Shown here in pieces: positions 30,401 to 52,408 of a stretch of 64,000 nt of DNA; position 1 is the first letter of the stretch; each line of letters begins with the position of its first letter. The notes beneath the pieces are model-generated. The model saw only the letters and a list, made by a program, of their open reading frames with translations, had not been told where the DNA came from and searched no databases. Position numbers and translations under genes: made by a program. Source of the DNA: Apostichopus japonicus (lineage: Eukaryota; Echinodermata; Holothuroidea; Aspidochirotida; Stichopodidae); NCBI RefSeq assembly GCF_037975245.1, contig NC_092583.1, positions 12,299,764 through 12,363,763 on the forward strand, given 5' to 3'.

Positions 30401-33400
30401 TGATACCAACCGAGGACAAGTCCACTGATCACGCTGGGATCTTCGGACAGAATCACCCTGGCATTACAGTCACTGGCAATGTACAGATCAATCTCGACTC
30501 CGTTTTGCATGCTGGGGGTCAGGATCTCGTTGACAAAGGTTGTCTTGGAAGGAGTATTCTCGTACCACTTGCAGAACTCGGGCTCCTCGAGGTAACATTG
30601 GACTGGGAACCCCATGAAAGAAAACAACATGAAACGTCATAATATATACAGGCAAAAATTAAAAAAGGCTATACGTATATTAAACACTAGCAAGAAACAG
30701 TGTGTGAAATATGTAGAATATGATTTCGAACAGCGAACCAACAGAGCTGTTTAATATTTATACTAATATTTATAATATTTGATACTCTTAATCGCAACGA
30801 CTGCTTAAAAGAACTTAAAGTGTGTATCCATGATTTTTTGACAATTCCACCTCCCCCCCCCCCCCACCTCTGTTTTGACCATTTAACATACTTGGCATCT
30901 TTGTGCCACAATGTACTATACACAAGAGCACAATAAACCGTCTTGATATGAGTAAATATACCAGTTTAAAGGTTTAAACCTTATTTTGTGTACTTACATC
31001 TATCCAATAGGTTCTTATAATGAATATAGAGTACGTATATGAGGCGTAGCAATAGGTGGTTCAAAGGTGGGTCCCCCAGTGCTCACGCGGGACCCCGGGG
31101 GTCACGTGTTCAATCATTTTGAACCAACGGATTACAACTGCCAGTCCAGATATTTACATAAAACTTTTAATACATTCCAACATGCCTATGCCAAGGTCTA
31201 CAATGTTTCGCTAATAACCGTTCTTTTTCTTCTTTCCAGTTGATTAACTATCAACTGTCACCTGCTTTGCCTAGCAGCTGTACGCCATTGGGGAGGGTGA
31301 GAGAGGAAGTAGGGGTACAGGCAACAACATCAGAGTATATAGTATGAGTGGTCTTACCTGGTTCTGGTTCTTCGATGGTGACAGGATCAACAGGATCAAC
31401 GGGATCAATAATTGGTGGTAGTGGATCGATCAGTCGGAGACGGAACGTTTCTCCTGGAGATCGAAAAGTATACAATAACCAGGCGTGGTTGGTAATTATA
31501 TATGCAAATAATTAGGAACGACATTAGGACCAACACACACAAATCCATGCTTTGAGCTGGCATTAATACGGAGAAGACAGGAGTTATAGGATTACAGAGA
31601 CACCCCCTCGTTAACCTCAGTGTAATCAGAAAGAACATTGATTTTGATTGGTCAGTTTTAAAATGTACGAGATGTCCACCTTTTGGGCCGTGAGGAAAAA
31701 ATAATAAAAACATTTAAAAGTTAGTATTTAATTAGGTCATGACCAATTCGAGCCATCGTGTATTGACGGACAGTTTGTGAAGATAATACTGTATACAAAT
31801 TCCCATACGCACGTACGACGGTTTCCCTAAACTCTGCCTCTCTCCGCCTATACAGCCAAAATGGCGGCGTTGGTTACATTTGCGGTTGAGTGGATCGATT
31901 CTGGAGGCACTAATCAACAGCTACCTTCAAATTTGAGAGAGGTTTCCATCGCTAAATTTGTCTAAAACAAATCCGAATTCTTGCTTATTTCGATATAATT
32001 TCGTAATAATTATGAAATCTATCAGTTACGGAAACATTGAAAGTCCAAACTACCTTTTTTATATATATATATATATAGCAACATCAAAATTGTAGCCATA
32101 CACATTTGGACAAAGCAGTAGCTACTTACGGGGATCAAAGCAAGTAAAACGACCTTCCGTGACATCTGTACCATACAAGATGTAGTTTGTAAGAGCTTCA
32201 TTTTGGATGTCCACCCTAAAAATAATAACAGGTTCCCTTGCGCCGTTGAGTTCCACTAAGAAACCAAAGGTCAGATGTCCATTAGCATACACCATCAATA
32301 TCTCCAATTCATCGTTGTTGTCACCAATTCTGTCCAAGAATGTAGAAGTGACCTCATTTTCACCGTAAACAGCCACCAAGTCATTAAGCGAGTCAATAGC
32401 TACTCCAAGAGATAGAGAAAAAAAGAAAGAAAAATCATACCATATCATATCATATCATATCACATAAAATTATACCAAATCACATCACATCACATCACAC
32501 CATAACATATCATCAAATCACACTACATGACGTCACGACATCAGACCATATCACATCATATCACGTCACATCACATAACATCATAACATACCATCACATC
32601 ACACAACATGACGAGATCAGACCATATCACGTCACATCACATAACATCATAACATACCATCACATCACACAACATGACGACATCAGACCATATCACATCA
32701 CATCACGACATCAGACCATAATACATCACATCACACAATCACATATCACGTCACGACATCAGACCATATCACATCATATCACGACATCAGACCATAATAC
32801 ATCACATCACACCATCACATATCACGTCACGACATCAGACCATATCACATCATATCACGACATCAGACCATATCACATCACACCATAACATATTATCACA
32901 TCACACCACATGACGTCACGAAATCAGACCATATCACATCACATAAAATTATACCAAATCACATCACATCACACCATAACATATCATCAAATCACACTAC
33001 ATGACGTCACGACATCAGACCATGTCACATCATATCACGTCACATCACATAACATCATAACATACCATCACATCACACAACATGACGACATCAGACCATA
33101 TCACGTCACATCACATAACATCATAACATACCATCACATCACACAACATGACGACATCAGACCATATCACATCACATCACGACATCAGACCATAATACAT
33201 CACATCACATCACACCATCACATATCACGTCACGACATCAGACCATATCACATCATATCACGACATCAGACCATAATACATCACATCACACCATCACATA
33301 TCACGTCACGACATCAGACCATATCACATCATATCACGACATCAGACCATATCACATCACACCATAACATATTATCACATCACACCACATGACGTCACGA

Positions 33401-36400
33401 AATCAAACCATATCACATCACATCACGTCATGTCATATCACATCAAATACACAAATACTTACCGACTAGAACACCTTCACTGTTTAGGTCATCCTTAAGA
33501 GTGAAGAAGAATCTGGCGTTGCCTTCAACATGACAGTACATTTCCCATTTGTCTTGGAACGATGGCTCTACAGGACGTACAGTAAGTCTTGGGTTGCCTG
33601 GCAACGCCTCCACAGTCACTGCAACAACAAATGAAAAACAGGTTTGTTTTAATATGTCATAATTACCGCTGCTGCTGCTAATCTTTCTAGAAAACGTGCA
33701 AAGTGATCACCTTGCTTCAAATGGAATGCAAGCATTAACTGTCAAACTTAGAAAATGGCAGAATATGAAAGTTCAAGGAAAGTAGGAAATATGTGCTTTT
33801 AAAATACGCAACTAGAGTTTTTTCAAGTTGAAGATATCCATTTTTATCAATAAACTTCCTTCTACTCTGATTTTATTGTTTTATCTGCTTCCTGTATGTC
33901 TCTGACGAATATAATTAATCTTTGTGCTATTAAAAGAATATTCCAGCTGTTTTCTTGACAACCGTTTTCAGTAAGAACGTTCCACTATATCTTTAGCGAC
34001 ACGACATTTATGTATAGGTAAATTGTCTGAAATATTGCTACAGTGTAAGAGGTAAACAGAAAGGTTTTTTTTTTTTAATTGGAAACAATAAAAATACTAT
34101 GATATTAGCCTTTCATATAATCAAGAATATCTGAACAATGTGAATCATTGACGTCACAATAATGTCCTTAACGTTTATGGGTTTTTTTTTGTTTTGGGGG
34201 GGGGGGGTGGGTGTTGGGGGCGGTGGTTGAGGGTATTTCCAATTGTCAGCTTCTATTAACCTGTAATTTACGAGAATATGCTTTCAAATTGGTGAAAGGT
34301 TCTTTTCAAGATGTTTTCGGGTTGTTTGCGATCAATATCAGAAACTTACTGGACTATTTGCCTATTCCTTGAAATAAAACTTTCAGTTGTTTTTTTTTTT
34401 CTTTCTTTATTTAAAACAATATACTCACTTGGGAATTGAACATCGATGCATCGGGGCTCGTCGAAAGCAAACTTGGCTACATCTGTAGTCTCGCCAATTG
34501 CAACGGAGCAGAACGAAGCATCACGGCCGTCGTCTTGTAAAAGGGATCGGTACTCCAGAACAATGCGGTTGTGACTCCTGACCTCTAACCAACCCGTGCT
34601 GTACTGAATATGCATCGGGAGAAACTTATTACGACCGTAAAGTACATGGTACATCGCCACCTTGTTAACACCGTCAATCCACAAGGAGATTTCCCCTGAA
34701 TCCATTTCTGAGTGAAAAATTGAATGAGAAATTTCATATTTTTTTTTATTTTAAGAAGAAAAGAACACAGCAAGTGCTAAATAGCACAATACACAACATT
34801 ATAAGTGGTTTTATGAAGAAGAAAAAAAAAACAATTTTACAATTATTGATATGATTACATTATTTTTATTTTGACTTCATACCATGTATTCTTCTTCTTC
34901 TACGTGAGCTTCAAATAGTTTTAGTAAATTAAGCCGTTAACCATTTACTAACCTTTTTGGCTTTCTAATTTTTCGATCCAACATTTCCCTTTTTATTTCT
35001 TTTTTAATTATTACTGTTTGATCAGAAAAAAAAGGGAAGATTTGCAAGTTTATTTTCCGAACTTACTGATGGTCCAGTCAGATTGAGTTTCGTCACAGTT
35101 AACCAGCTTGAGTATAGCCTGGTCGCCAGCAACTCGGAATGGTAGCGAGAACCCGTGGCGACACTGATTCTTCAAATCAATTGGTGTAACATCTTTGTCC
35201 TTCTGAGATTCATACCACTTGCAAATCTCAAAGGAATCAATGAGTTCTGCCTCGTCAACGAATTGTTCTGAAATGATAACAATAAATGCACGTATAAACA
35301 TCAGGCCGCGGAAAGTCACAGTTTCGTGTATTTGCACTATTGGCTAAACCCAACCAAAGACAAGTCTTCTAGTCTGTCTTGCATTAGACATTAAGATGGC
35401 GGGGAGGGGGGGGGGGATACTACGTAGTATGAGTCGATTAACAAACGTTAGGGATAGAATTCCCCATGATTTCCATATACCTAATATGAACCCATATTTA
35501 CAATATACTCAGTGGCGTAGGAAGGTACTTTTGAGTGGGGGGCTGAAGACTGATGGCCGGCCTGGGGGAGGGGTCTAAGGGGGGGGTTTTCCCCTCCCCT
35601 TTGGATTTTTTTGCATTTCCAGGTGGCCTCAGATGCAATTTGGTGCAATATAGCACACTTCAACACCCACTCCATTTTGTAAACTTAATTTTGTATTTTC
35701 ACCTGGCCTTAGATGCAATTTGGTGCTCCAAATGAGATTTTTTTTCTCATTTGGAAATGAAAAAGGGGTTTTCTGACTTGCGGAGAGGGGGGGGGGCGGA
35801 ATGATACTTCCGCCCCTCCACATTTTTCACTGGGGGGACTGGCGCCCCCCCCCCCAGCCCCCCCGGTTCCTACGCCCTTGAATATACTGCTTATCATATG
35901 ACTGGGATGTCACCGAGACCTTCACGAGTTTTATATGTGTGCTGAAAATCAGTCAGGTATAAAGGTCAATGAGAAAACTCTTCTTGTTTTCTTTTTCGTT
36001 TTGGCCAGCAGATTTTCTTTTAGAGCACTTGCATGTTTTTTTTTTTTTTTAACCAGTGGTTAAAGGTTGTGAAATAGATCATGGTTTACTTGATGGCAAT
36101 GTGCAACTAGGATAAGACATTTCCAACACAAGCTTAGATGACGTGTATTGATTCAGATGTAACAAGCACAATGGAGCATCAGATCAGCGGGATACAGATC
36201 AATATATATGAACACTGACAAACAGTGGTGTAGCCCCCCCCCCCCAGCCCCAACTCCCCTCCCGGACCCAACCCGAAGTATTTGTCTTATACCCCTGCCA
36301 TATATTCATTAAAAGTAGTGGGTGGAGAGTTTCCACCTGATATAAAACACTGGAAAACTTTAAACGATATCGACAGCAGTAAACTAAACCGAATCGGTCA

Positions 36401-37225
36401 TTTTTTTAAATATAAAAATAAAGTGTAGTTAGTTTAATTAAGTATTCCCCCAAAGGTTATAAAACGAACATATGCTTATTTGAAACCCTATATCCATGTG
36501 GTGATTGAGGATGAATAGCGGGCTTATGCCAAGCTTTCTCATGTCGACGAGTGTTCAGAGAGTTGCGGTGCAGGCGTACAATTGTCTCTCCCATTCCTGT
36601 TCCCATGAGTGCCAGTTAACGCCCCAACCCCTCCCCGACCAACCCCACCCATCAGACGGGCGAGAGTATACCTCAGCATTTGATCACTTTCTCAAATGAC
36701 TGAGAGAGGTGAAGTTCATCACCAATAATTTTTAGATATGATGAACGAAGTTGTTTCGAAACCCTTAAAAGGACAGAACCAAACCTTAGTTCCCAATTTG
36801 CAGACCCAGATTTTAAGAAATCCACTAAAAAAGAATCCCCAGCAATTTGAATAGTTCAAGGTTATCTCATGGGGTGGGGGTGGAGGGAGAGGGGTGGAGG
36901 GAGTGGAAGGTGTGCCGGACACTTAGACTTCTTCACAATACCGTCGCCTATTATCTGTTTCCCTTTATAAGATGGCATTTGAAGCTATGAGGCTTAGCAA
37001 TCGGGAGGTTCGGGGTTCGATCCCCGGCCGGGTCATAGTATAAGGTGGGGATTTCATCCAGGAGCAGTCTACGGTTTTCCCATCTGAAATGACTTTCTCA
37101 AATCGAAAAAGATTCCAAATGTGAGCAAAAAAGTGTTGAATTGGAAGCCACCCGACATGACAGTTGTAACCCGCGGGTTTCTCCTACATTCGTGGTGGCT
37201 TAAGCATCGTAAAAATAACTGCCTG

Positions 37226-37312
<87 letters not shown>

Positions 37313-37382
37313 AGCCGTACATACCTTGCGCGGTAGCGACAGCTAATAAGACGACGACAGCTAGACACTGGAATCCCCTCAT
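17016..37382 (-). CDS. Secreted protein with eight farnesoic acid O-methyltransferase-like modules
   Basis: Twenty exons on the minus strand: 37325-37382, 35067-35267, 34429-34707, 33463-33618, 32130-32402, 31358-31453, 30411-30602, 27830-28108, 27069-27227, 25821-26072, 24501-25085, 23509-23676, 22233-22541, 21599-21766, 20739-21023, 19654-19821, 18941-19225, 18389-18517, 17998-18077, 17016-17252 (TAA). They join into one frame of 1,452 residues with all GT-AG introns, phase 1 except the last (phase 0). Exon 1 encodes a signal peptide, MRGFQCLAVVVLLAVATA. The rest is eight modules of about 130-170 residues, most encoded by a short exon plus a long exon, with Pro-rich linkers at residues 323-354 and 649-843. 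Module 6 (YVEFWISFRSGAIRVGKVG) fits the Methyltransf_FA domain best. That domain is named after a crustacean enzyme, but I see no S-adenosylmethionine-binding motif. With a signal peptide, no membrane helix and mucin-like linkers, a structural or binding role outside the cell is likelier than methyl transfer. Its function is unknown. Confidence 0.9.
17541..17705. repeat. Cluster of GTGAACA/TGTTCAC motifs in the last intron of the modular gene
   Basis: The 165-base stretch contains GTGAACA-like words about seven times plus reverse forms. It starts with the perfect palindrome GTGAACA-CAG-TGTTCAC (17544-17560). It is either a decayed short tandem repeat or a cluster of inverted binding sites with a 3-base spacer. 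Confidence 0.6.
18941..19821 (-). CDS. Module 7 (exons 16-17) of the modular secreted protein
   Basis: Residues 1154-1304. Exon lengths (168 and 285) are identical to those of module 6, which suggests a recent duplication. Exon 16 encodes GGGAYIEFGIKADGEVLIAL, the beta-rich first half. Exon 17 has the CRDC pair and ends FHFHVFL. The donor is CGTACGT at the end of exon 17; a nearby GTATTC could also serve but breaks the frame. Confidence 0.85.
20739..21766 (-). CDS. Module 6 (exons 14-15) of the modular secreted protein
   Basis: Residues 1003-1153. This is the clearest member of the Methyltransf_FA type: an EIG start of the long half, then YVEFWISFRSGAIRVGKVG, a Trp (FMSWQG), and PEIRFAFFESG. 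The family consensus has FWI, G-I-VG, W and P-I-VGF blocks in this order. Confidence 0.88.
22100..22215 (-). mobile_element. tRNA-like SINE head remnant in an intron of the modular gene
   Basis: The minus strand reads GAGGTCGTGGGTTCAAGTCATGG, a near-perfect B box, next to a GCTAGCGTAAGCCGCATGCC A-box side. It lies directly downstream of exon 22233-22541. Confidence 0.5.
22233..23676 (-). CDS. Module 5 (exons 12-13) of the modular secreted protein
   Basis: Residues 844-1002. The short half reads SAYFEFSVEAIQSVWINLS; the long half contains LDFTDTRPLWISYAGFATR, matching the tryptophan-Asp-Pro part of the family. Two cysteines (RCENDFCSD) occupy the place of CRDC in module 7. Confidence 0.86.
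23740..23860 (+). mobile_element. 3' fragment of the SINE family with the AACTGCCTGA tail
   Basis: GTGGAATTGGAAGCCACCTGACG and the segment ending in CGTCGTAAAAATAACTGACTGA match 37136-37227, the body of the SINE at 36965-37310. Only the 3' body remains. Confidence 0.65.
24501..25085 (-). CDS. Linker 2 (exon 11): long Pro/Thr/Ser-rich linker of the modular secreted protein
   Basis: Residues 649-843. The exon encodes TAPP repeats, then two nearly identical 29-residue units built on IPTDRPTQQPSSVAQTDEP (24779-24865 and 24866-24952), then diverged PTDRPITPS units and a Ser run. It is mucin-like, likely O-glycosylated and extended, and separates modules 1-4 from modules 5-8. The opposite strand carries a 240-codon shadow frame. 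Confidence 0.87.
25821..27227 (-). CDS. Module 4 (exons 9-10) of the modular secreted protein
   Basis: Residues 512-648. The first half has a Cys (VVGDCATGF) and ALLFQASPDAPQIIL; the second half ends in AVIGIAKFKFQRC. It pairs with module 3 as module 2 pairs with module 1. A TA microsatellite (about 27366-27404) lies in the intron before it. Confidence 0.84.
27830..30602 (-). CDS. Module 3 (exons 7-8) of the modular secreted protein
   Basis: Residues 355-511. Exon 7 has EFCKWYENTPSKTTF, the counterpart of FEICKWYESQKDKDV in module 1, so modules 1-2 and 3-4 are a duplicated pair. The intron between exons 7 and 8 (28109-30410) holds a family-2 MITE, a dispersed repeat and SINE scraps. Confidence 0.86.
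28800..28885 (+). repeat. GT-rich microsatellite in an intron of the modular gene
   Basis: GTGTGTG runs broken by CTT and CAT steps. No gene content. Confidence 0.8.
29355..29610. repeat. Dispersed repeat, copy 1 (similar to 36515-36830)
   Basis: Both copies share, in order, a TCTCCCATTCCTG block, a GACGGACGAGAGTGTA-like block, a CAGCATCTGACCACTTTCT-like block, TTGCTTCGAAACC and CCCAATTCACA-like blocks. No termini could be set. Confidence 0.6.
29718..30030. mobile_element. Short hAT-type MITE, family 2, copy 1
   Basis: Terminal inverted repeats are CAGGCGCGTAGCCA and its reverse at the right end. The flanks ATTGTGTT and AGTGTGTA agree at 6 of 8 positions, fitting a decayed target duplication. 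The body is the reverse complement of the copy at 54956-55267. Confidence 0.78.
30031..30075 (-). mobile_element. tRNA-like SINE A-box remnant
   Basis: The minus strand reads TTGATTCAGCGGTTAGAGTG followed by TCCGCCTACAC, the left half of a tRNA-like SINE head. It directly abuts the family-2 MITE, which may have inserted into the SINE. Confidence 0.45.
31358..31453 (-). CDS. Linker 1 (exon 6): Asp-Pro repeat linker of the modular secreted protein
   Basis: Residues 323-354, with IDPVDPVDPVTIEEPEP. It is short, acidic and proline-rich. It follows modules 1-2 just as the long Pro/Thr linker follows modules 3-4. Confidence 0.85.
32130..33618 (-). CDS. Module 2 (exons 4-5) of the modular secreted protein
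   Basis: Residues 180-322. Exon 4 has KWEMYCHVEGNARFFFTLKD; exon 5 contains DELEILMVYANGHLTFGF, which fits the aromatic-then-glycine strand pattern of the family, and ends GRFTCFDP. The intron between them is filled by the ATCAC satellite. Confidence 0.85.
32430..33445 (+). repeat. ATCAC-based satellite with higher-order repeats, filling an intron of the modular gene
   Basis: The basic word is ATCAC/ATATC. Larger words (GACATCAGACCATA, ATGACGTCACGA, CATAACATATCATC) recur, and a block of about 480 bases is repeated once (starting near 32466 and 32945). The perfect CRE palindrome TGACGTCA recurs at several places. A 160-codon frame across it (His-Ile-Thr-Ser only) is an artefact. Confidence 0.92.
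34429..35267 (-). CDS. Module 1 (exons 2-3) of the modular secreted protein
   Basis: Residues 20-179, directly after the signal peptide. Exon 2 contains FEICKWYESQKDKD and NQCRHGFSLPFRVAG; exon 3 contains GEISLWIDGVNKVAMYHVLY and the closing FAFDEPRCIDVQF. The four cysteines shared with module 3 suggest disulfides. Confidence 0.86.
35510..35879 (-). mobile_element. Short hAT-type MITE, family 1, copy 3
   Basis: CAGTGGCGTAGGAA at the left and CCTACGCCCTTG at the right, flanked by a perfect 8-bp duplication AATATACT. It lies in the first coding intron of the modular gene. Confidence 0.9.
36515..36830. repeat. Dispersed repeat, copy 2 (similar to 29355-29610)
   Basis: Collinear with the copy at 29355 through CTCCCATTCCTGTTCCC, CAGACGGGCGAGAGTATA, CAGCATTTGATCACTTTCTC and TTGTTTCGAAACCC. 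Similarity is roughly 65-70% by eye. Confidence 0.6.
36965..37310 (+). mobile_element. tRNA-derived SINE of a third family with an ATT tail
   Basis: The head is truncated but shows a B box GGTTCGATCCCC (37015-37026). A body of about 180 bases ends in CGTAAAAATAACTGCCTG and then about 28 ATT units (37227-37310). The tail ends 15 bases before the first coding exon of the modular gene, very near its splice donor. Confidence 0.75.
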
Positions 37383-40273
37383 TTTGTCTATCTTGATGAG
37401 GCTATATCTGAAAATAAAAGGAAACAAATATATTTTACGATTAATTTTTACACATCAGTCCCGCGAAATGTATAAAAGCTGCAGGTTATTTTACTATGAG
37501 CAGTTGCTATGTCTAAATCCAATCGCTTCATATTCTAGAGAATGCAAAAAACATGGAGGATCATAAAGTAATATCAAATTCGGATCTTGTACGCCAAAGT
37601 GTCTTGGACGTACTACTGTAGGCCTTTTTATAGTTTAGATGCGGAATTCATAGGCCTAGCTTTATTCTCATACTAAATGGCATCATTCTTCTTCATTTGT
37701 CTTTAATAAGGACGACGACGTCCAGGTCAGATTGTATTTTTAGATCCCTTTTTTTCTATGTGGAAACTACCCTTTAAAGAGCTAATATTCATCAATTAAA
37801 AGTGACTGGACTATTTAGTTTAATGTAAAGATCATTACGTCATCGGTTCCTCAGAGCGCAACACAAAAACTCAATAGAAAAAAAAGAACATTCAATTTGG
37901 ACGTTTGAAGTTTTATAGTCTCATGTGGAATATTTGACAATATGTTATACAATTGTATTGAATACCGGTAATCATCTAAGGATGTTCCGTTGTTAATATG
38001 AAGTTAAAAGAATATATGTTTTATTAGGTTAATCCGTTATTTAGAATTTACAAAACAATGGATTAACATCATCACAATAATAAGGCCTACACTGAGGAGC
38101 AGACGTCATCCTCACTTTAATCTTAAAGGAGCATTCCAATTATTTTACATATTTCAAAAACCGGAATATGTATAGAAAATTACTAGCACTCGCATTTCTT
38201 CCCCTTTTTCTTTGACTACGAGAAACAAAATGAAAATATAAAATTCTGCAAATAAGTCATCCTGTCTAAATAATATTTTTATTTTTTTTTCATTTCGTCT
38301 CAATGGTCTTTAATTTTGACAATTCAAGGACGACAATTTTCTTTGTGACTTTTGGGCACTTTTGGCGTTTTCAAAAATAAATGGTGGGGCGGGGGAGGGG
38401 GAACGTGCCTCCTGTGCCCCACGAATTGGCCACTCCTGACTCCCCTTGAAGGTTTGGCTTCAAGTAATGCTGAACATAAGGCTGTATCCACCTCTCCTAT
38501 CCCCACCTCACCGGGGAAAGATACCCACAAGGGCAGCCCGCCACCTCACGATTTAGCTCGAGGGATATTGTTAGACTATAGCATGCAAGAAGAGTCAACC
38601 AGTACTTTAAGCGCAAATACGGCCTTAATTGATGACAGCAAAAATTCAAAAATTAGATGTGCTAGCTATAGTCTTTAAAAATTAGGTGCGTTGGAAGAGG
38701 GATCAATCTGGGGGGGGGGGGGGGCCACAAACCTCGGAGGGTATAGTGAGTGGGACATGCGACACTGATTTGAGAGGCAAACCACAATGTTTTACTTCAA
38801 ATTTTCCGGCGAAATGGACCCTCTGTTTATACCGTAACCCAAATTCCTGTATTTGAATGACTTTTCAACAACATGGCACTTTTTTTTATTAAAACTTTAT
38901 TTGTTTTTATTTATCAACAAAGAAAAAGGCAACTTTTGATTTGAAAATGGGAAAAAAATATTGTACTGTTGATTACCAAACAGTGCAGAAAAGGGGCACT
39001 TTTGAAGGGAAAGGGCACGTGCCCCTCATGCCCACATGCAGGCTCAGGTGGAGCTTCTTTAAGTTGTATTGAAAGTAAACAAATCTTACCTTTTCTGAAA
39101 TTCGACGTTTTCTTTTCTCTTTTATGCGAACTCTACAGCGGACATTTAATATGACAAACGATAGTCCGTCTCGGCAAAATTCTCTCGAGTAAATGAAGTC
39201 AGTCCTTGACAACTTTGTCGCCTGAAGCGTGGGAGAAATTTATCCCCCCAAAAAATTCCAGAAATAATCGATCGATTATAATTTAGACAAGGTAAATATG
39301 ATAGTAGGTGGTTTAAAAATTTGGCAAAAAAACAAAAAACAATACGAGAGTGATAAATAATCGAATGAGAGAAAGGAGGTGTTACAACACCTGTTGTTTA
39401 TCAGTATTTATTATGTTCCATAACAATAGCCACGCCTGCGAAATATTTGAAAAATCGGTCTGTGACGTAAGTCTATTCTCTCAAATCGTGTGATTTGAAA
39501 GTCTACAAAATGACGGAGATTTGAAAATTCGAATGACGGTTTTTAAACAAAAGCTAAAATCAAATGAAAAATCAATAAAAAGGAACAACAATAAAAATTA
39601 AAACTGCCAAAAAAAAAATACCGTATGCATAACGTTGTGGAAAAAAATTGTGTTAAGTTTTTCTTCACAGAATGGTTAGATTATTTGGTTATTAATCTAG
39701 AGGGGGGAGAAGCTGACATCGGCCCAGTTTCGAATAGGCAAAGTAGGATAGGCTAGGTGTATCCATGAAGGTATAAGTGTGGTAGGCTAGTATTAAATGC
39801 CTAATTAGCTCTGTAAGGAATACTTACTCAATGTTTGTTTGCTTTTTTCGTCTCAAATAAATAGTCTGTTTCTATGCATGTTCAATGGACAAGACACGTC
39901 ACCATGGAAACACAACCAAGCCTGTGCTAGAGCACAACTTTTTATTAATTTAAAAAGAAAATACTCGAATAGTAGGGTAAACAAAGTCCCCCGACTGACA
40001 ATGGAGGTGCGCGAGGGGTGGGGTGTGGGTTGGCATCCGCCTGCCCCACCTCAACTTTGCTCACGTCACTGATCTTCCCTGTGTTTCTTCACAACAGTTT
40101 ATAACGTCAAGCGATCGGTGTAAAGTTTCAAAGGTAGGTCCTATTGGTCATGTTGGTTGAATGTGTCCAGTGAGAAAAATAAAGAAATTATCCGCAAACC
40201 ATGCTTTCTAGACTTTTCTTAATTTACAGGGGTTTTTTTATTTATTTTTTTAACGAAACTATATCAAGGTAAC
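37383..40273. other. 5' flank of the modular secreted-protein gene
   Basis: On the minus strand a good acceptor (TTTATTTTCAG) precedes a 25-base leader from 37407 to the ATG at 37382, so a non-coding 5' exon is likely. A matching donor (GAAAAG then GTAAGATT) at 39089-39090 makes about 39090-39220 a candidate. The rest is AT-rich, with a G run at 38711-38724. No other gene was recognised. Confidence 0.45.
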
Positions 40274-41061
40274 CACTGGCGGATCCAGGGCCATTGTTTG
40301 GGAGGGGCCAAAGTGGCATTAGAGTGATATGGGGGGAGGGGCCTAAGGGGAGGGGGTTCCCCCTCCCCTTTTGAAAATTTTCTATTGCTGAATGCCCTCA
40401 GATGCAATTTGGTGCGACAAGTGTACAATGGTGATGTTAATTTACTTCTAAAAAAAATGTTTCCCAGGTGTAATTTTCTAAAATATTTATAAAACAAAGT
40501 TGGGATCATCTTTCTCAAGAAATTTTATTTCTCATAGGTTATAAATTTCTTACAACCAGCCTGTAACTGCAAAATTGTGTTAAACTGTAAATCCTCATGC
40601 TCGTACATTCATGGGCGGCGATCCGTACTTTCGAGTGGGGGGATATGACCTTGTTGACTATCTAAGCGTAGCGCCACCATGAGTTGGCGCGAAGCGTACA
40701 AGAAAATTTGGGGATTTACAAACCCTCTAGATGGCCGGAAACGGCACTTCCCAAGGTTTCCAAGCGGCATATACCCAACTTTAAAATAGGGATATCATGT
40801 CCGAAATATCTCATAATCAGGATCCAAAATACTTTTTTTTTTTAATTTCGGGTGTTATTTTGGGAAAATTGCCCCTGTCAATCTTGTTTCAGGCGCTACG
40901 TTAGAATGTTCGAGAGCTCTTTTATATTATTCCATGAAGAAAATGGCCCCATGCAGGCTATTATAGGCCTATACACATGCAATACACAATTACACATAGT
41001 TACATACCTAGGTACCGATTGCTAGGGCATCCAGGTGAAACGTGTATTAAGCATTACCATG

Positions 41062-44000
41062 CACTGAAAACTTAAATTGGTTCACCGACTAACAAAACGT
41101 TAGTCCATCTGGTGCCTCTCCCGACTAACATAGCCTTAGTCAATTGCTATACCGACTAATTTATTCCTTAGTCAGTTGGATTTCTTAGTCGGTCATCTTA
41201 GTCCGTCAGCTTAGTCGATCAACAATTTTTTAGTCGGTAAATGTTTATTAGTCAGTTACATTAGTTGGTGACATTAGTCGGTCTTTACCGACTAATTTAT
41301 ATGAGCCACCGACTAGTTTATAGCAGGTTTTACATTAGTCAGGATGGTGCCTCTCCCGACTAACCTTTCTTAGTCGGTATCGACTGACTAGTTGCACTGA
41401 CTAGATTCACTGAAAGAATTAAACCCGACTAGTTTCACTGACTAGTATCACTGAAAGAAAAGGGAGCAGGAGAAACACAAATAATGTGTACATTGGCAGT
41501 ATTTATTTCTGATAAAACTTCTGATGTCTACAAAAGGCTGACTTTCGACAGATAGAGAAGAAATCACTGTAAATAAAATCTGAAAATCTGATTTTTTTTC
41601 CAACAAAGATAAGACAAGTTAATGGATCAAACATGAATCGCAAAAGTATAGCACTGCACAATAATGCAAAGTTGAGTCTTGGGCAAGGGTTCCTCATGAC
41701 TTTCGTTTTAAAGTGGTACCCCAAATCGACACCAGTTAAGTCTTCACGAACAAAGAGTGTTTCTCTTAACTACAAATGGCCTCCCACTTGTCTTCAGGAA
41801 GCCAAAATCTGCACCATTATTGACCTGTGAACAGAAAATATGATATACGTGTAAGCACAGATACAGATATAGCACATGATAACTCACATTATCATAAACA
41901 TACATTTACATTAAAATTTTATAACATATTGGGAGGTATACATTTAAATCTAGGTCCCTCAAATTATAAGCCAGGAATAGCAGCTTTACCAAATTATTAT
42001 TAGCTTTGCACAGCATAACACCAAGTTATTTCTCAAAGCTTAATAATTATGTTAATCATGTTAATAATGATCCCAATAGACCGGGATCCCAGAGGGTTTG
42101 GTTAGCTGGGAAGGTAACCAATTGCCTTGTACATCACAATGTTCACAGTGCATTCCTGTATATGAAACCAGACGACTGGCAAACCGACTGTGGTGGGTGT
42201 TGCTGGGAGAGCAATTTTAAAGTCACCTGATAGCTAACCTAGATCAGTTTTCATGGTAACACATCAAAGTAAGTACAATATGTCAGGTATGGCCCCAAGA
42301 GCAACAAATGGCCATTGCCAGTAATTATTGGTGGTGGGGTACCCCTGCCAGTGATCTATAATTGACCCCTCAAGGCTGACCTAGGTCAGCTCATGAGGTA
42401 ACCACTTGAAACCTACTGGAAAATGTTGGTTAGGGCTTCAGATACAACTGATGGGCATTGCCAGTAATTTTTATTGGTGGGGTACCCCTGCCAGTAGACC
42501 CCCAAAATGCCCATCCCCCATTGACCTAGATGAGCTCATGATGTAACCAGTTGAAAACTACTGGAAAATGGTATCACTTCATATGTAAGGGATGGGAATT
42601 TCCAGTAATTTATATTGGGGGGGGTACCCCTGCCAGTAGACCCCCAAAATGCCCATTCCCTCATTGACTTAGGTCAGCTCATGAGATAACCAGTTGAAAA
42701 ATTACTGGAAAATGATAGGTATCACTTCATATGTAAGGGATGGGCATTTCCAGTCATTTACATTGGTGGGGTAACCCTGTCAGTAGACCCCCAAAATGCC
42801 CATCCTCCATTGACCTAGATTAGCTCATGAGGTAACCAGTTGAAAACTACTGTAAAATGATTGGCAGGACTCTATATATATGTAAGGGATGGGCATTTCC
42901 AGTAATTTATATTAGTGGGGTACCCCTGCCAGTAGACCCCCAAATGCCCCCCCCCCCTCATTGATCTAGGTCAGCTCATGATTTAACCAGTTGAAAACTA
43001 CTGGAAAATGATTGACAGGATTCTATATGTAAGGGATGGGCGGACTCTGGCAGTGGTGGCCCACCAATATAAAATACTGGAAATGCCCATCCTTACATAT
43101 GAAGTGATAACTATCATTTTCCTGTAGGTTTCAACTGGTCAAATCATGAGCTCACCTAGGTCAATGAGGGGATGGGCATATTGGGGGTCTACTGTCAGGG
43201 GTACCCCACCAATAAAAATTACTGGCAATGCCCATCCCTTGTATCTGAAGTCCTAACCAACATTTTCCAGTAGGTTTCAAGTGGTTACCTCATGAGCTGA
43301 CCTAGGTCAGCCGTGAGGGGTCAATTATAGATCACTGGCAGGGGTACCCCACCACCAATAATTACTGGCAATGGCCATTTGTTGCTCTTGGGGCCATACC
43401 TGACACATTGTTCTTACTTTGATGTGGTTACCATGAAAGCTGCTCTAGGTTAGCTATTAGGTGACTTTAAAATTGCTCTCCCAGCCACATCCACCACAGT
43501 CGGTTTGCCAGTCATCAGGTTTCATATACAGGAATGCATTGTGAACATTGTGATGTACCAGGCAATTGGTTACCTTCCCAGCTAACCAAACCCTCTGGAC
43601 TCCCGCTCTACAGATCAGTGAAAATTTGACCAAACTTATGAAGCTTGCACATAAATGATATACTAGACTGGTTTTTTTTTTAAAACAGGTTATGAAAAGT
43701 ATCTTAAATATCATTAAACAGTTGGGTACAATAGTTAAACTCACTCTTCCATCTTTTTTCTCTATGGTACTTGTTCCTTTGCTTTTTGGACTCTTGGATA
43801 AACTCTTTTGTTCTGCGAAGGGTACCAATATATCATCTTAAAACATGTCTTTAAGCCATATATAACACAGTTCTCCTCTTCTGTTGTTGCTTCCACACTG
43901 GTGTCGTACATCACAGGAAAGCTCACCCTTGACTTAGATATTTGGCTTTTCAATTCCTGCTGGAAGAAAGAAACAGCAAAGTATTCATCATTTGAAAAAA

Positions 44001-45850
44001 ATAAATAAATAAAGTTGTCACCACAAAGTTATGTGAGATTTGCTTCCACTATAGTCTCAAAAAACAATCCCAAAGTTTGAAGCAGACTGTATAAAGCTGA
44101 AAATTTGAACGAGAGTGTCATCACCATTGCAACCAGAATCAAATGCCCAGAATACAGAGATAATAAAACATGGGCTAAATCTTTGTTTGTTTTTATGATC
44201 TTTAAAAATATAAAATTTTAGAAACAGAAATGCACTGAGCCAACTTATTTATAGGCCTAATCGTTTTTAGTTGTTATTTTGCTTGCTCACATAACAAGCC
44301 TGTTTAGACCTAGGCTAGAGGAGAATCAGTACTTTGTTACACTAAGTTTGTCTTCGGTCGTTTTGATATAGTCTTACTAGTAGTACTAAAGTATATAATG
44401 GACCGGCGAAGACTAGAGAATACTGCAGAGTTTTAGCAACTGCGTTAAACTGTATCATCTGATCTATTATTTACGCCAATGAGTTTCATTCAATCTAGGA
44501 TCAAAAAGAGAAAACTAATTAATCTTAACCTTTAAACTTTGCTACTAAACAGATATGCTTGAATTACAAATAAATGTCAAAAAACATCATAATCTAAGAA
44601 TCGATGCATATACATATACATAAACAGAATAATTTGAATTCGCGCAAGTGAACCCTGCACTACATTGGACAGAAAAAAAAACGTGCAATTAGACCAAACT
44701 AAACATACTAAATTTTCCGTTACTTCTACATAAAATATCAATGCAAATACAACAACTTACTCTTTTGGCAGTATACTAAAAGCACATGTTATAATAACTT
44801 CAGACTATCAAGCTTTCCTGAGAAAAAACGGTTAATACTTCTTACAGTAAGCAAGTCGACCGTGAAGGAATGTCGCAATTGTTTCCTGGGCGTGACCGGA
44901 AATTAAATACTAAAAAATGATAAATGAAAAGGTTAAATAGAACTGAAGCGTGCATCCTGACTGCTCGCAACATATAATACCGTTGACTAGCCAACATAAT
45001 TTGTTCAGCCTACTGTGACTGTACGTTTGAAGGTCTAGCCTTGCTTATTCAATATCACAAAGCCTACCCATTTAGATTCACATGGGAAATTACAGGAAAT
45101 CTTTATCAAATGAGTGTAGACTTCAAATAAACTATTGAGCCTTATAGTTCCAGCATTTGTTTGGGAATAAATAAGAAGATTATGTGCCACTGTTTAATCT
45201 AGCCCAATACACACATAACACATTGTTAATTGGTGTTTAGGATGCACACTTTAGTGTTGAGAATGCACTGCAGTACCCAGTAGAAGCCTATAGGCTACTC
45301 ACTGTCATTGCACTTGTGTATTGCGAAACGCCAACGTGACAACGGTAGCGTTACACTAACCATAATACAGTACTAGTGCCAGTGGCCTAACAATTAACTT
45401 TAATTTTACCTTCAAATTAAAGGAATAACAGGTAGGCCGATGATGCAGTTAATACCTCCATTCTTCTAAAGACCATCTTGGGTGATTTACGGTTGAAAGT
45501 TGCTTAGAGTGATCGTATGAAACTATGCCAAGCCCAGCAAGCTGCCGTTGCCTCTCGGTTTCCAAATTGAAGTGAATCGAATTGGGTTAAAATACATTAG
45601 TCTGTCGACACCGACTAAGCTACGATTATGCCGTAAATCGGGTGTCCGTATCGTTCTTAGTCCATGGGTTAAAATACCTTAGTCCGTCGCCACCGACTAA
45701 GCTGCGATTATATTTTCCTTAGTCAGTCTAAACTAACTAAGAAGCAGCGATGACACGAAGATTTTTGCTAGTCCGTGTGCATTGACTAACGTTACAGACT
45801 AATTTAACGTTAGTCCGTGGCAATATTGACTAGTTTATTTTTTCAGTGTG
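41062..45850. mobile_element. Third element: 4.8 kb non-autonomous transposon with CCGACTAA subterminal arrays
   Basis: The ends are CACTGAAAA and TTTTTTCAGTG. The left 400 bases carry about 21 copies of GACTA or TTAGTC words in both orientations (typically CCGACTAA and TTAGTCGG), and the right 260 bases carry about 10. Such dense subterminal repeats resemble transposase binding sites of CACTA/EnSpm and some hAT elements. The flank TTACCATG on the left fits GTAACATG on the right at 6 of 8 positions, so the exact ends are uncertain. The interior has no convincing protein frame. Confidence 0.7.
42068..43619. repeat. Large imperfect fold-back built of about 145-bp tandem units
   Basis: The outer arms (42068-42420 and 43255-43619) are reverse complements over about 350 bases, sharing CAGAGGGTTTGGTTAGCTGG and CAAACCGACTGTGG. 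Inside are about five forward units (beginning near 42380, 42520, 42660, 42820 and 42960) with TGACCTAGGTCAGCTCATGA and GGTACCCCTGCCAGTAGACC, and about two reverse units near 43100-43300. The unit contains the palindrome TGACCTAGGTCA. Confidence 0.85.
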
Positions 45851-46892
45851 GTAACATGAGATTCTCAGCTGTTCGAGGGAACATGTACGTGTGTAGGCCT
45901 ACTATAGGGCCTTTATGAATACTATGAGGGTGCATATATGTACTATATCAATACCGTGATAAAGATAAAGACGGTTTATTTGAAAAGATGGCACTGCGTT
46001 TATGGTAGGCGAGAAATGAAGCTAAAAAAGAGCCGTACATTCACGATGAAACATAAATGTAGGCATGAAAATATTCTTATCCCTGGCATTTGGTGGGGGG
46101 GGGGATATGGTGTATTACATCCCCTCCACCCATTTTCATGGGGATATATCCCCCCTTCGCCCCCCCCCCCCAGGATCTCCGCCCATGCATACATTTACAT
46201 AGCTCCCAACTCTTGAGAAGGCAAATGCTGGTCCATGCCACGAATCGCCGTCCTGGGGGAAGGGTTTAAGGAGAGGGGGTTTCCCCCTCCCCTTTTGATT
46301 TTTTTTTTGGAATCCTGGTGATGCCTACATGTAAAATGGTGGCACTTAGAAAGGCTTTTGTCACTCAAAATTTTCTGAGAAATATGCATTTTTTTGTGTG
46401 GAACATCAATAAATTGAATAGTAGGTGATAATTCATTCTTTCCCGTGGCATGAAAATGGTCGCTGCTCGCTCAAATGAAAAGAAATATAGGCTAATTTGA
46501 GGTTCAAATGATGCTGTAAAGGGGGTTTTATACTCTATTATGCTAAATGCTAAAGAAATGATGGTTGCTAAGTCAAAAATTGATGCAAATTTTGTTATGT
46601 ATACTTGACAATTACAATGCGGTTTTTTCGGACGCTTATGCGGGTCAGCGGGTTTGGGTGTTAGAATGCGGGTCTAATTCCCGCGAATTGCGGGTCAGTT
46701 GGGAGCTCTGCATTTAATTTTAAACCAGAGAACGAAAAGGTTTAGACTAGTCTACCACTGCTATTCCTCTCGATTTTTTTAAATTTCCAATCATATGATT
46801 TAGCGGATGTTCGGAAACACTTTTTGGCTCACCTTTGGGGGGCCATGGCCCCCCTTGGCCCCCCCCCCCTTGGATCCGCCAGTGAAGGTAAC

Positions 46893-49775
46893 TCATTTGG
46901 GGTCATGACACCGACGTGATTTTCAGCTCCATTCGCGCGTTGTTATTGGTACTGAAAGGACTGGCGTCTTTATTACTTGAAAATGCTTCTATAATGCCGA
47001 AATTACCGATCATGAGTTTTACCAATTTGTTGCCAAAATTGTTCAATATCGCTGTGAATATGTTGTCCAAGCATTCGACATTGAGTAAAAATTCGCAAGT
47101 TCAAAGTTCAAAGTGCGATAATACTTCCACCCACCATGCACACGGGGGCTAATTCAGCATTTTTTTTAAAGAGAATGTGTATTTGCTGGCTGCTACCCCA
47201 GATAATAAAAATCTATCATAGTAAAATGGTAAATCCTGAAGGATATGTATAGGCTCTAAATTAAGTCTATAACTAGTTCTACACTCAAATTTATATATTA
47301 TAACTACAACTTTTCATTCTATGATGTGTATACTCCACCCCAACCCCACCCTTGGGATCCACTCTTCTACTGTGCTATATGAAGAGCTGGCTAAGTAGAA
47401 TCCAAAGTTTAACATCTCGCATAACTTTTAGCCACCTTTCGATACATCACCTCCTTTCTCTCCCACCCCCACCCCCCGAAACCATTTTGCTCATTTCGCT
47501 GCATTTTTTTTTCTTTTTCTACTTTGTTTTTACATTTCGACATAAAAACAAAATCCTGATAACACTCCCTCTGACATGTGGCATAACACCCTCTTGATAG
47601 AACTACGCACAGGTTATTGATTTATTGATAAACCTTCATGGATTATTCTGGAAGTATAAATTGAGTGAAGTTTCCCACCATATTTTTAACGCCCGACGTG
47701 TCCTGTCACAAAGGATGGAAAATGTGTTACGAACACATGTTGATAAAGGCGTGGTACTATACTATTATATAGGCCTACTACCATAAAGGGGACGTGCCAC
47801 GTCACACCAAGTAATAGTACCGTCACACACTAACACACAGTATAAACGTTAAACAGTTTAATAACGTTCTTTAAGGTAAATGTGATGGTGGTTACTTTAT
47901 AGGACTTGGGATGAGAGACTGTTTTTCTTCTTGATGACATGTCTTGTGTTCATCAACGGTGTTTGAGAATAGAAATAACGAACCAGTAAACGAAACCAAA
48001 AAGGAAGTGAACAGTTTAAAACAAGTTACCAAGAGTTCTTTATTGCAAGTATAGGAGAACAGTTCCACTCCTGCGTTCCAACCCCGCTTAGATAACCATA
48101 GCCATTCTCTCCTCCTTTATGCGAGATAAGGAACACTAGACCTTCACCGGGCGAAATTCCATTAGCAATCCGGGATAGCCTTTTCTATTGTACAGTTAAC
48201 CGATCCATCGTCTACGTGATGAACTTGCATTCTCCATGTGATCCTAGCCTTTGTTCTTCCCCTCAAAGGTATTACGTAAATTACTGTACGGCAACATTAC
48301 TTTTTCAATACAAAATCCAATACAACTATAAATGCTCGACATATATATCTATCTCAAACACCTATTTTCCTTCTTGAACAAGTAGACAATACACGACGTT
48401 CACCTAAGTTACATTTGTAATTGACATTGAGCAATATAAAATTCATATACGTTTCATTGTTAAACGATTGGTTTTTCTTATTTTAAAAAATAGCATATTG
48501 GCGAAAAGTTTCTTTAAAGGAGAATCACACTCAACTTAAAGACTAATTAACAATATTAATTAACAATTAAATAGCATCCTAATTATGTAAATGAAATTTC
48601 TATAAAATAAAACCCAACATGTCCTAAGCAACTAAGCAGAATTGTATTCCATTTGACGGATCTAAAGTCATGGTTTTAATGTAGGACTAAACCGACTCAG
48701 GCAAGTCTAAGCATGCCATTACAGCGCCACCTTTTTCTTCTAGTTTTAAATATTTTTGTTTATTCATTGTCTATTGATTTTTCTTCATCCAGTTGTGGCA
48801 GTTTATCAATGATTATACCACTCTACGGTTTCCTTCAATATCATGCTTTGAAGCACTCGCACTGACCGTATGAACAGTTCCTAACCTTTATCTGATAGAA
48901 AACAAGATATCCACACTGTTCGTACTGTCAGAACGAGTACTTTTAAGCATGGTGACATGGGAGTACAGTTTAGCCTAAATATTGTCTCAACTGGGTGTTT
49001 TGCTTAATGTATGTGACATTTGCTAATATTGTTTCGAATTTATCGATATTTTGACGTTACTATATGCATAGGATATTAGGTTGCTTGGCAACGTTTTCAG
49101 CATCTACGGTGTTTGTACCTTTCACCATAAAACAAAGAAAAGGGAAAAGTAACATTAGCCCTGTGATATATATGTGGTATACCGACAGTCCATTTGAGAG
49201 CACCCTGATATAATTTTTCAAGCTAGAAAACTCCCAAAATCGAATAGCTTATAATAGCCATTTTGGAGGCATGGGGAGGGTATGGGTGTGGGGGGGGGCG
49301 CAGATCACAGGCCTCTCACATAAGAACATATAATGATTGGTTCAGTTGCGTCATTATCATTTCATCATCACTATATTACTCCATATAATCCTGCTAATCC
49401 TGCTTAAGTTTCAAAAGTTGATTTCCTTTTAGGATTTTTTTTGTTTTGTTTCATGATATTGTCTGAATTATTTCCAGAAAATTAGATGGATATAGGTCAA
49501 GGGATTAGTGAGATAAAAGATAGAGGGCAACATTTAGTGTGATCAATTTAAAGAACAAGAGATAAGACGAACGATCATATTGTTGTTGCATCGAGGAAAC
49601 ATGTTCAGTTTGAGGCATGTTTGTATAATTACCTTTAATAGAGTATACACTGTGTAATACTGTTATGGCAAGAACACGCTTAAAATAATAAGAGACTAAA
49701 TGTTTGTGTATAAGACGACTGCATCATCGTTATCGGAATCATGAAATAACCGCGTCGGTCACCTTGGAAACGAGG
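46893..49775. other. Intergenic segment
   Basis: About 2.9 kb of AT-rich DNA between the nested transposons and a tandem repeat. Open frames are short and match nothing I recognise. C-rich runs (about 47460-47480) and a G run (about 49290) are the only features. Confidence 0.6.
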
Positions 49776-49844
49776 ATTGTATGTCATCTGCATGCATAGT
49801 CCTCATCATATACAGTATCCAGAAGAAACAGAATGCAGAACACC

Positions 49845-50300
49845 CACCCCCCCCCCCACACACACACCTGACACTGACACAAACACACACATGTTTGTAT
49901 TACATTCCAACCGAGGACCCATTGTATTTTCCATTGTTCAAATCCACGTACCCTTACCTTAACAATGCCCCATACAATAGAATTCTTCCGAGGACGTGGT
50001 GATTCTTTAGAAATCACAACCGAGGACCTGGAGTTCTTTTGTTCAAGTCCTCGGTCAGATAGAAAAACAAACGCACACACACACACCCATTAACACACGT
50101 TTGTTTTACATTCAGACCGAGGACCCCATTGTTATTTCCATTGTTCAAATCCACGTACCCTAACCTTAACAATACCCCATACAATAGAATTCTTCCGAGG
50201 ACGTGGTGATTCTTTAGAAATCACATCCGAGGACCTGGAATTCTTTTGTTCAAGTCCTCGGTCAGAATACAAAACAAACGCACCCCCCCCCCCCTCCCTC
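49845..50300 (+). repeat. Two tandem 206-bp units with CCGAGGAC/GTCCTCGG inverted repeats and CA runs
   Basis: Unit A starts near 49889 and unit B near 50095, each preceded by C and CA runs. Each unit holds ACCGAGGACC, TTCCGAGGACGTGG, a GTGATT-AAATCAC hairpin and an 8-base perfect inverted pair CCGAGGAC (50020-50027) with GTCCTCGG (50047-50054). The two units are over 90% identical by eye. Confidence 0.85.
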
Positions 50301-50501
50301 CGCACACATACACCCACGTCCCACATTTTGCCAAATTTAAAGCTTAGAAAGCGATAGAAGACCAAACGATAGCCAAAAAGGAAAAAAAACTAATACTTAT
50401 AATCTTTATAAATTAATAATAACCAGTATAATCATTTAAATGGTTTCAGTACCAAAGCCGCTGTGAAAATTTAAATGACCGTTTGTTTTTTCACTTCTCT
50501 T

Positions 50502-50507
50502 TTTATT
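50502..50507 (-). promoter_or_regulatory. Candidate polyadenylation signal of the fucosyltransferase gene
   Basis: The minus strand reads AATAAA about 550 bases after the stop codon. It is not the only AT-rich possibility. Confidence 0.35.
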
Positions 50508-50945
50508 CCTTTTTTTTTTGTCGTTTTAACTTCACATGGGACAATGTTAGAGTAATTTTTTGTCCCAGCCCGGGTGGCCCACACTTCAAAATGGAATCCA
50601 CTGAAACCTGGACATACAAAGCCACACGAAACTGTGAGTACAGGGTCGACGAAAGCAGACACGCAGGCACATCCACCAGCTCACAAACCCATAATGGCAC
50701 ACGGACCCCAAATCACACATACACACTGCACACAACGATGTTTCAATATAATGTAATCTGCCGCCGATTAGTACACATACTACGTGCAGTAGTAAATATA
50801 CGAGGTAGTCAGTTTCATAGATTGGTAGGTCTGTAAATGCACGATTTTCCCCCTTTGTTCTCTCTCTTTCTCTCGTCCCCCCACCCCCGCCCTTTTACTT
50901 GTAAAAAAAGAAACTTAAACGCAGTCTATCAGTATAATTATCAGT

Positions 50946-51122
50946 GTTAATTAATCAATTAAAAATTATGTTACTTCGTATTCAAACTGAGATCCAGTTA
51001 TGTTTTGCACGCGGCTCCCAAAAACCCATAATATAAGACTCAGTGGTTAATTAATAACTATGTTACTTCGTATTCAAAATGTGAGATCCAGTTATGTTTT
51101 GCACACGGCTCGCAAGAACCCA
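50946..51122. repeat. Tandem duplication of the 3' end of the fucosyltransferase coding sequence
   Basis: Bases 51058-51122, which encode the last about 20 residues and the stop, have a partial copy at 50966-51028. Shared words include TGTTACTTCGTATTCAAA and GATCCAGTTATGTTTTGCAC. The preceding TTAATTAAT is duplicated as well. The outer copy lies in the 3' untranslated region. Confidence 0.85.
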
Positions 51123-52389
51123 TCCACTGTTTTGATCTGGGATTAAAGAAGTGTTGTTTGTGTCTTTTTTCCATCTTGTCCGTTCTGTATAAATCAGCCA
51201 TCTTACATGCACTATAACAAGAGTAATATATTCCCGGTGGTGGCTCATTGGCTCCGGCAATTATTGGTGCAGCTGTTTCACTCGACAAGTTTATAACATA
51301 TCCAACTTCCCGCCATTTAAAATATTCGTTGTATAAAGTATCGTTACTGTCGACATATTTCAGATATGATACCAAATCTTGCATCGATTCGAAGTCATCA
51401 GCGTAAATGAACGAATTTGGAGGCGCTAGATTCAAATAGTCGCGTTTCTGTGGACCAATCACAATCGGTACTGTATTTAATATTAAAGTTCTCCAAAGTT
51501 TTTCGCTGATATATTCCTTACAACAACTGTTCTCTAATGCGAGATAAAATTTATGACTTTGTATCTTTTTATCACATACTGATGAATTTCGGGGGCAAGA
51601 TATGCCAGTTGGTCCACCATAGATATCGATGTCAACTAGACTAGACAATGTCTCGACAAATCCTTTTCTATTCCACTGTTTCGCGGAATTGGTTGACATC
51701 CATGCAACCAATCCCGTTTTATTCTCCGCCCAATTTAAAGTGGTAGCTCTTTGCGGTTTTTCGTATCGTTTGAAATACCCGTAAGGAATCGTTATATCGG
51801 AATTTGAACGATAGGTACACGACCAATGGTAAGTCTTCTTAGTTAGCGGTTTCGGTATAAGTGAGTTACGAAGTTTCGAGGGCGTTTCTCTTGTTGCGTA
51901 CACCCATCTTTGTAATCCGTGGCGCTGTTTAAGAATTCTCTTCCAATTGTCATCGATGCCGGGCGCTATCGCTACATCGTATGGAAACACTACGATATCG
52001 AAACTTCCCATCTCGGAGGTCTTTTTAAACATTCTCTTGGAAACAGTCCCCACTTGTGAACAGTTGCAATAAATTTGGCTGTTGAACGGTTGAAAAAGTC
52101 TTTCGTACAGCCAATAAGTTCGCAACCCCTCGAAATATCCGACAGATATCTTGTTCGACCCAATTTCTGCATCTTCTATCCTCTTGTTTGCTTTGTTTGT
52201 ATTTCTATGCGTTTTGCCTGGATGAAATTCATCAGTGGAATGGTGAATTCCAGAGACTTTCTTCGGTGTCGCGACATAAATTGGTAGCGTGACTTTATCA
52301 TGATGATATATAACAAGAAAAACAGATAAACAAAGAACCAGAATTAGCCATAGTCTATGAAAACATGATTTTATAGATCCCATCTGCAT
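51058..52389 (-). CDS. Alpha-1,3-fucosyltransferase (glycosyltransferase family 10), type II Golgi membrane protein
   Basis: It would transfer fucose from GDP-fucose to N-acetylglucosamine of glycans in the Golgi. The single coding exon gives 443 residues from MQMGSIKS. Order: short cytosolic tail, signal anchor (about 13-28, LWLILVLCLSVFLVIY), stem, acceptor-side motif YATRETPSK (164-172), WMSTNSAKQWNRKGFVETL, DIDIYGGP, the GT10 donor motif from HKFYLALENS to YISEKLW (279-299), VPIVIGP (307-313), and a Cys-bearing C-terminus (SCEPC). Several N-glycosylation sequons are present. An open frame extends 58 codons upstream, but a strong acceptor (CTCTTCTTCGATAG) ends at 52409, only 19 bases before this ATG. 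The coding exon is therefore probably preceded by a 5' untranslated intron, and this ATG is preferred. Length and motifs are normal for the family. The exact linkage made cannot be told. Confidence 0.94.
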   Translation of the reverse strand: MQMGSIKSCFHRLWLILVLCLSVFLVIYHHDKVTLPIYVATPKKVSGIHHSTDEFHPGKTHRNTNKANKRIEDAEIGSNKISVGYFEGLRTYWLYERLFQPFNSQIYCNCSQVGTVSKRMFKKTSEMGSFDIVVFPYDVAIAPGIDDNWKRILKQRHGLQRWVYATRETPSKLRNSLIPKPLTKKTYHWSCTYRSNSDITIPYGYFKRYEKPQRATTLNWAENKTGLVAWMSTNSAKQWNRKGFVETLSSLVDIDIYGGPTGISCPRNSSVCDKKIQSHKFYLALENSCCKEYISEKLWRTLILNTVPIVIGPQKRDYLNLAPPNSFIYADDFESMQDLVSYLKYVDSNDTLYNEYFKWREVGYVINLSSETAAPIIAGANEPPPGIYYSCYSACKMADLYRTDKMEKRHKQHFFNPRSKQWMGSCEPCAKHNWISHFEYEVT

Positions 52390-52408
52390 AGTAATTTTCG
52401 GAGTACAC

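What the first reader, a model, noticed from the sequence alone, without database searches (positions are those of the whole stretch)
40266..46892. Three-level nest of transposons with readable target duplications
Reading outward to inward: CACTGGCGGATCCA termini with a perfect 8-bp duplication AAGGTAAC enclose CATGGGCGG termini with an 8-bp duplication (7 of 8), which enclose a 4.8 kb element with CACTGAAAA termini. Seen directly: the paired termini and the flanks. Known: 8-bp duplications with short CA-starting termini mark hAT-type transposition. Inferred: three successive insertions, the outermost oldest. None carries a transposase, so all were mobilised in trans.
Basis: partly seen in the sequence, partly recalled or inferred. 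Interest (0 to 1): 0.8.

Follow-up and report, generated by a model that had tools for sequence, protein, structure and literature searches.

The report
Nested, transposase-less cut-and-paste DNA transposons
A stretch of what looks like animal DNA holds small 'jumping genes' that landed one inside another, a tidy but ordinary record of past transposon insertions.

Summary
The outer pair (40274-46884; 14 of 14 terminal bases, 8 of 8 duplication) and the middle pair (40610-46187; 13 of 14, 7 of 8) look like non-autonomous hAT-type insertions: a blind scan gave 9 such pairs in the window against 0.85 per shuffled window, and related short elements with such ends lie elsewhere in the window. The inner element (41062-45848) is not hAT-like: no 8-bp duplication, CACTG ends, and a motif packed into its two ends (32 of 34 copies), as in CACTA/CMC elements; its flanks share only TG. 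'Three-level' is an undercount: a fourth small element (46198-46710; 13 of 14, 6-bp flank) sits beside the middle one inside the outer, and a 1.5-kb foldback lies inside the inner, though no duplication marks it as an insertion. No transposase domain was found in six frames. Empty sites and other genomic copies could not be tested: the genome search did not complete (9 attempts). Ordinary transposon nesting, new members of known kinds.

The parts
40266..40273 (.). left target duplication of the outer element, AAGGTAAC
40274..46884 (.). outer element, hAT-type, about 0.5 kb of its own sequence (40274-40609, 46711-46884 and a few bases between)
   Evidence: termini 14 of 14, flank 8 of 8
46885..46892 (.). 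right target duplication of the outer element, AAGGTAAC
40602..40609 (.). left target duplication of the middle element, CGTACATT
40610..46187 (.). middle element, hAT-type, about 0.79 kb of its own (40610-41061 and 45849-46187)
   Evidence: termini 13 of 14, flank 7 of 8; internal homology to 29797-29891 and 55025-55161
46188..46195 (.). right target duplication of the middle element, CATACATT (7 of 8)
46198..46710 (.). fourth element, hAT-like, 513 bp, inside the outer and beside the middle one
   Evidence: termini 13 of 14, 6-bp flank CATTTA at 46192-46197 and 46711-46716
41062..45848 (.). inner element, CACTG..CAGTG, CACTA/CMC-like, about 3.25 kb of its own
   Evidence: termini; end motif clusters
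41062..41461 (.). left subterminal array of TTAGTC/CTAGTC motifs, 21 copies on both strands
45560..45848 (.). right subterminal array of the same motifs, 11 copies
42077..43610 (.). foldback with arms 42077-42646 and 43037-43610, built of units of about 145 bp
   Evidence: 535 identities in 567 aligned positions, 10 gap positions

Best explanation
A nest of non-autonomous cut-and-paste DNA transposons. A hAT-type element of about 0.5 kb inserted first (AAGGTAAC duplicated). Two hAT-like elements then inserted into it at overlapping target bases, one of about 0.79 kb (CGTACATT) and one of 513 bp (CATTTA); which of the two came first cannot be read. A CACTG-ended element with end arrays (about 3.25 kb, CACTA/CMC-like) inserted into the 0.79-kb one and now holds a 1.5-kb foldback. 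Shown: ends, flanks, arrays, and no recognisable transposase domain. Inferred: that transposases encoded elsewhere moved them, and the superfamily of each.
For: Paired ends and flanks. Related short elements in the same window: 10806-11168 (flank 7 of 8), 14164-14529 (8 of 8), 35510-35880 (8 of 8) and 54956-55267 (8 of 8, read by eye). Internal homology of the outer and middle elements to some of these. End motif clusters that stop inside the CACTG termini. No Pfam family in six frames of the nest, E up to 0.1.
Against: No empty site and no second full copy of the outer, middle or inner element was seen; the genome search did not complete. The middle's duplication has a mismatch although it is younger than the intact outer one, and one of 60 shuffles gave a pair scoring as the middle one does. 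The inner's flanks match for 2 bp only. The fourth has 6 bp, not 8. The foldback has no clear duplication. One relative of the middle, 29718-30030, has flanks matching 6 of 8 (by eye).
Confidence: 0.85

Rival explanations
1. All layers are one composite transposon that moves as a unit; the inner pairs of ends are internal parts of it.
For: Copies of the outer family without the insertions were not available for test; the genome search did not complete (9 calls).
Against: Each of the outer, middle and fourth pairs has its own target duplication, and related elements of about 0.3-0.4 kb in the same window lack such inserts.
Confidence: 0.04
2. The inner element is hAT-type after all and its 8-bp duplication has been lost, or its ends lie elsewhere.
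For: Its flanks share only TG and the 9-bp termini alone would not stand out.
Against: The motif clusters end about 20 bp inside the CACTG termini on both sides, 32 of 34 copies, an anatomy described for CACTA elements (PMC8978399, passages). The motif was chosen after seeing the region.
Confidence: 0.12
3. The foldback is not an insertion but an inverted duplication of a tandem array that arose in place inside the inner element.
For: No flank longer than 4 bp matches near the arm ends; the arms consist largely of tandem units of about 145 bp.
Against: The arms run past the tandem units to a sharp outer border shared by both, as in foldback transposons.
Confidence: 0.45

Closest known systems
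non-autonomous hAT elements (hAT MITEs)
   Same: short CA..TG terminal inverted repeats, 8-bp duplications (outer 8 of 8, middle 7 of 8), below 1 kb once the inserts are set aside, no transposase domain, related copies nearby
   Different: the fourth element has a 6-bp flank; hAT families with 5, 6 and 7 bp are described in PMC12730594 (passages seen)
CACTA/EnSpm and the CMC group (Chapaev, Mirage)
   Same: CACTG..CAGTG ends; [quoted passage not shown] CA..TG ends with 2-5 bp duplications in the wider group (PMC12730594, passages)
   Different: no transposase domain found; only TG is repeated, while CACTA makes 3 bp (PMC4158355, passages) and Chapaev 3-4 bp (PMC4079192, passages)
foldback elements such as Tetris of Drosophila virilis
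   Same: long inverted arms with internal tandem repeats, no transposase domain (PMC4079207, passages)
   Different: Tetris shows 8-10 bp duplications; none found here

Membership tests
hAT, non-autonomous (outer) | 8-bp target duplication | tested here: met
   AAGGTAAC, 8 of 8
hAT, non-autonomous (middle) | 8-bp target duplication | tested here: met
   CGTACATT / CATACATT, 7 of 8; met with one mismatch
hAT, non-autonomous (fourth) | 8-bp target duplication | tested here: not met
   6-bp CATTTA only; called hAT-like, not filed as hAT
hAT, non-autonomous (outer, middle) | short CA..TG terminal inverted repeats and kinship to other such elements | tested here: met
hAT, autonomous | hAT transposase domain inside the element | tested here: not met
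   no Pfam family in six frames, E up to 0.1
hAT, non-autonomous (outer, middle) | moved in trans by a hAT transposase of the same genome | not testable with these tools
   genome search unanswered
CACTA/CMC (inner) | CACTR..YAGTG ends | tested here: met
   CACTGAAAA / TTTTCAGTG
CACTA/CMC (inner) | subterminal repeats at both ends | tested here: met
   32 of 34 motif copies in the terminal 400 and 289 bp; motif chosen after seeing the region
CACTA/CMC (inner) | 2-5 bp target duplication | tested here: inconclusive
   TG / TG in the flanks; nothing of 3 or more bp at the exact ends
CACTA/CMC (inner) | CMC transposase | tested here: not met
   no Pfam family; so CACTA-like at most, possibly a non-autonomous member
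foldback transposon (42077-43610) | long inverted arms with internal tandem repeats | tested here: met
foldback transposon (42077-43610) | target duplication | tested here: not met
   best exact flank near the arm ends is 4 bp and out of register with the arms; not filed as a foldback transposon

The most novel reading that the evidence does not exclude
The inner element is a new animal CACTA/CMC lineage that carries its own or a captured spliced gene on the minus strand (start codon at 45476, acceptors at 43959 and 41824, AATAAA at 41507) and prefers palindromic targets (its joined flanks read TTACCATGGTAA).
Probability: 0.08. Interest if true: 0.4.

Novelty: new member of a known kind. Interest (0 to 1): 0.15.

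Why it matters
It is a clean stack of insertions that fixes the exact ends of several short transposon families and the relative order in which some of them were active in this genome. It is not a new kind of thing: nested transposons are common (over a third of candidate coding Mutator-like elements in maize and rice hold nested insertions; abstract of PMC3903597).

Tried and rejected
A transposase in the nest: six frames read with X at stops gave no Pfam family at E up to 0.1.

A gene in the inner element: the splice scan found four acceptors above its threshold (two of them used here) and no donor at all; the two donors that I considered (45455, 43744) were read by eye and failed that threshold. 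In the frame that is open from the acceptor at 43959 a stop comes before the donor at 43744. The pieces gave no Pfam family (8 pieces; one E 0.11 match to a bacterial lipoprotein family, far below its cut-off), no solved relative at E up to 10 (2 pieces) and none in viral contigs (1 piece of 65 aa). Codon use: the fraction of random open stretches scoring as high was 0.64, 0.02 and 0.60 for the three pieces; the yardstick was one window gene, and its own first half was no better than 6 of 7 random open stretches, so this test has little power. Kept only as a lead.

A palindromic target for the inner element: joined flanks give a 12-bp palindrome; 52 of 13,990 random joints with a 2-bp match do so, but it was noticed after the fact and is one site.

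A larger enclosing layer: of 227 pairs found around the nest (left end 34001-40274, right end 46884-52999, first 4 bases identical and at least 12 of 14), 15 were printed, best first; among those with 13 or 14 matches only the outer element had a flank match above 3 bp; pairs with 12 matches were not looked at.

A duplication around the foldback: none convincing.

Papers: searches. The outer terminus as a string gave 18 papers, 8 listed, mostly unrelated; the one MITE paper opened (PMC2997013, 12 of 47 passages) did not show the string in the passages seen. The others gave general precedent. No claim is made that these families are absent from print.

Full report
Setting. The window reads as animal DNA; this is inference from its composition, repeats, a fucosyltransferase frame and a farnesoic acid methyltransferase-like piece (2 of 10 pieces given to Pfam had a match). 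No call names the organism.

Observation. Every terminus and flank of the finding is at the stated place. A blind scan for CA..TG elements with 8-bp flanks returned the outer and the middle pair among 9, against 0.85 per shuffled window over 60 shuffles. Three of the 9 come from the symmetry of the foldback, three are short elements elsewhere (10806-11168, 14164-14529, 35510-35880) and one (7777-10386) is at chance level. One shuffle of 60 gave a pair scoring as the middle one does; none scored as the outer one. With exact 8-bp flanks and at least 12 of 14 terminal bases there are 3 pairs, one of them a foldback artefact, against 0 in 60 shuffles.

Outer and middle. Both have the anatomy of short non-autonomous hAT elements. 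Other short elements in the window have similar ends and 8-bp flanks: 8 of 8 in 14164-14529, 35510-35880 and 54956-55267, 7 of 8 in 10806-11168, and only 6 of 8 in 29718-30030 (the last and 54956-55267 read by eye, the latter beginning CG, not CA). They share internal sequence with the nest: 40332-40415 with 35564-35646 (81%), 40657-40753 with 29797-29891 (81%), 40657-40798 with 55161-55025 (74%). That these relatives stand as elements of about 0.3-0.4 kb without large inserts supports separate insertions. They are relatives, not copies of the same families; no second full copy of the outer, middle or inner element turned up in the self-comparison of the window.

Fourth element. 46198-46710 has ends matching in 13 of 14 bases and an exact 6-bp flank, CATTTA; pairs with a 6-bp flank and at least 12 of 14 occurred once in 60 shuffles. 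It has the G-rich stretch of these families 46 bp from its left end (46244-46305, 85% to 35553-35612), a stretch that the outer element already has in its own left half (40332-40374 with 46255-46298, 89%). Its left flank overlaps the right duplication of the middle element, so their order cannot be read. With both set aside the outer element is about 0.5 kb.

Inner element. The CACTGAAAA pair alone would not stand out. What marks the element is a motif (TTAGTC, CTAGTC and complements, chosen after seeing the region): 21 copies in the left 400 bp and 11 in the right 289 bp, 32 of the 34 inside it, against 29 in the other 59,213 bp. Outside the element no 400-bp stretch holds more than 2, and in 60 shuffles none more than 5. 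This is the anatomy described for CACTA elements (PMC8978399, passages). The flanks repeat only TG; at the exact ends nothing of 3 or more bp matches. With one TG left out, the joined flanks read TTACCATGGTAA, a perfect palindrome (52 of 13,990 random joints). It may be a target preference, a 4-bp duplication CATG that lost two bases, or chance.

Foldback. 42077-43610 is a long inverted repeat (535 identities in 567 aligned positions, 10 gap positions) made largely of tandem units of about 145 bp. It resembles foldback transposons (PMC4079207, passages), but no duplication flanks it, so whether it inserted or arose in place is open.

Coding. Six frames of the nest show no Pfam family at E up to 0.1. 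A short spliced gene on the inner element's minus strand is conceivable (acceptors but no donor above threshold) and is not supported by relatives or, with a weak test, by codon use.

How it works. Nesting fixes the order outer, middle, inner; the fourth came after the outer. Mobilisation in trans is inferred from the absence of a transposase domain. Against a simple age reading, the oldest duplication is intact while the younger middle one has a mismatch; one base in 8 proves little.

Limits. The genome search was sent nine times and never answered, so copy number, empty sites and autonomous partners are untested.

Noticed in passing
10806-11168, 14164-14529, 35510-35880: Three elements of about 365 bp with CAGTGGCGTAGGAA / CAAGGGCGTAGGAA-type ends and 8-bp flanks matching 7, 8 and 8 of 8.
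   Followed up: partly
29718-30030 and 54956-55267: Two elements of about 312 bp with GCGCGTAGCC ends that share internal sequence with the middle element; flanks 6 of 8 and 8 of 8.
   Followed up: partly
41500-45500 (minus strand): Possible spliced gene in the inner element: start codon at 45476 in a good context, acceptors at 43959 and 41824, AATAAA at 41507; no donor above threshold, product unidentified.
   Followed up: partly
188-1059: Tandem array of about 373-bp units (2.3 copies) with three tRNA-like matches; a further tRNA-like match lies at 7209-7280.
   Followed up: no
51058-52575 (minus strand): Fucosyltransferase (glycosyltransferase family 10) in one open frame of 505 codons.
   Followed up: no
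32444-33445: Long array of ATCAC-rich repeats with a 474-bp higher-order unit, two copies 96% alike.
   Followed up: no
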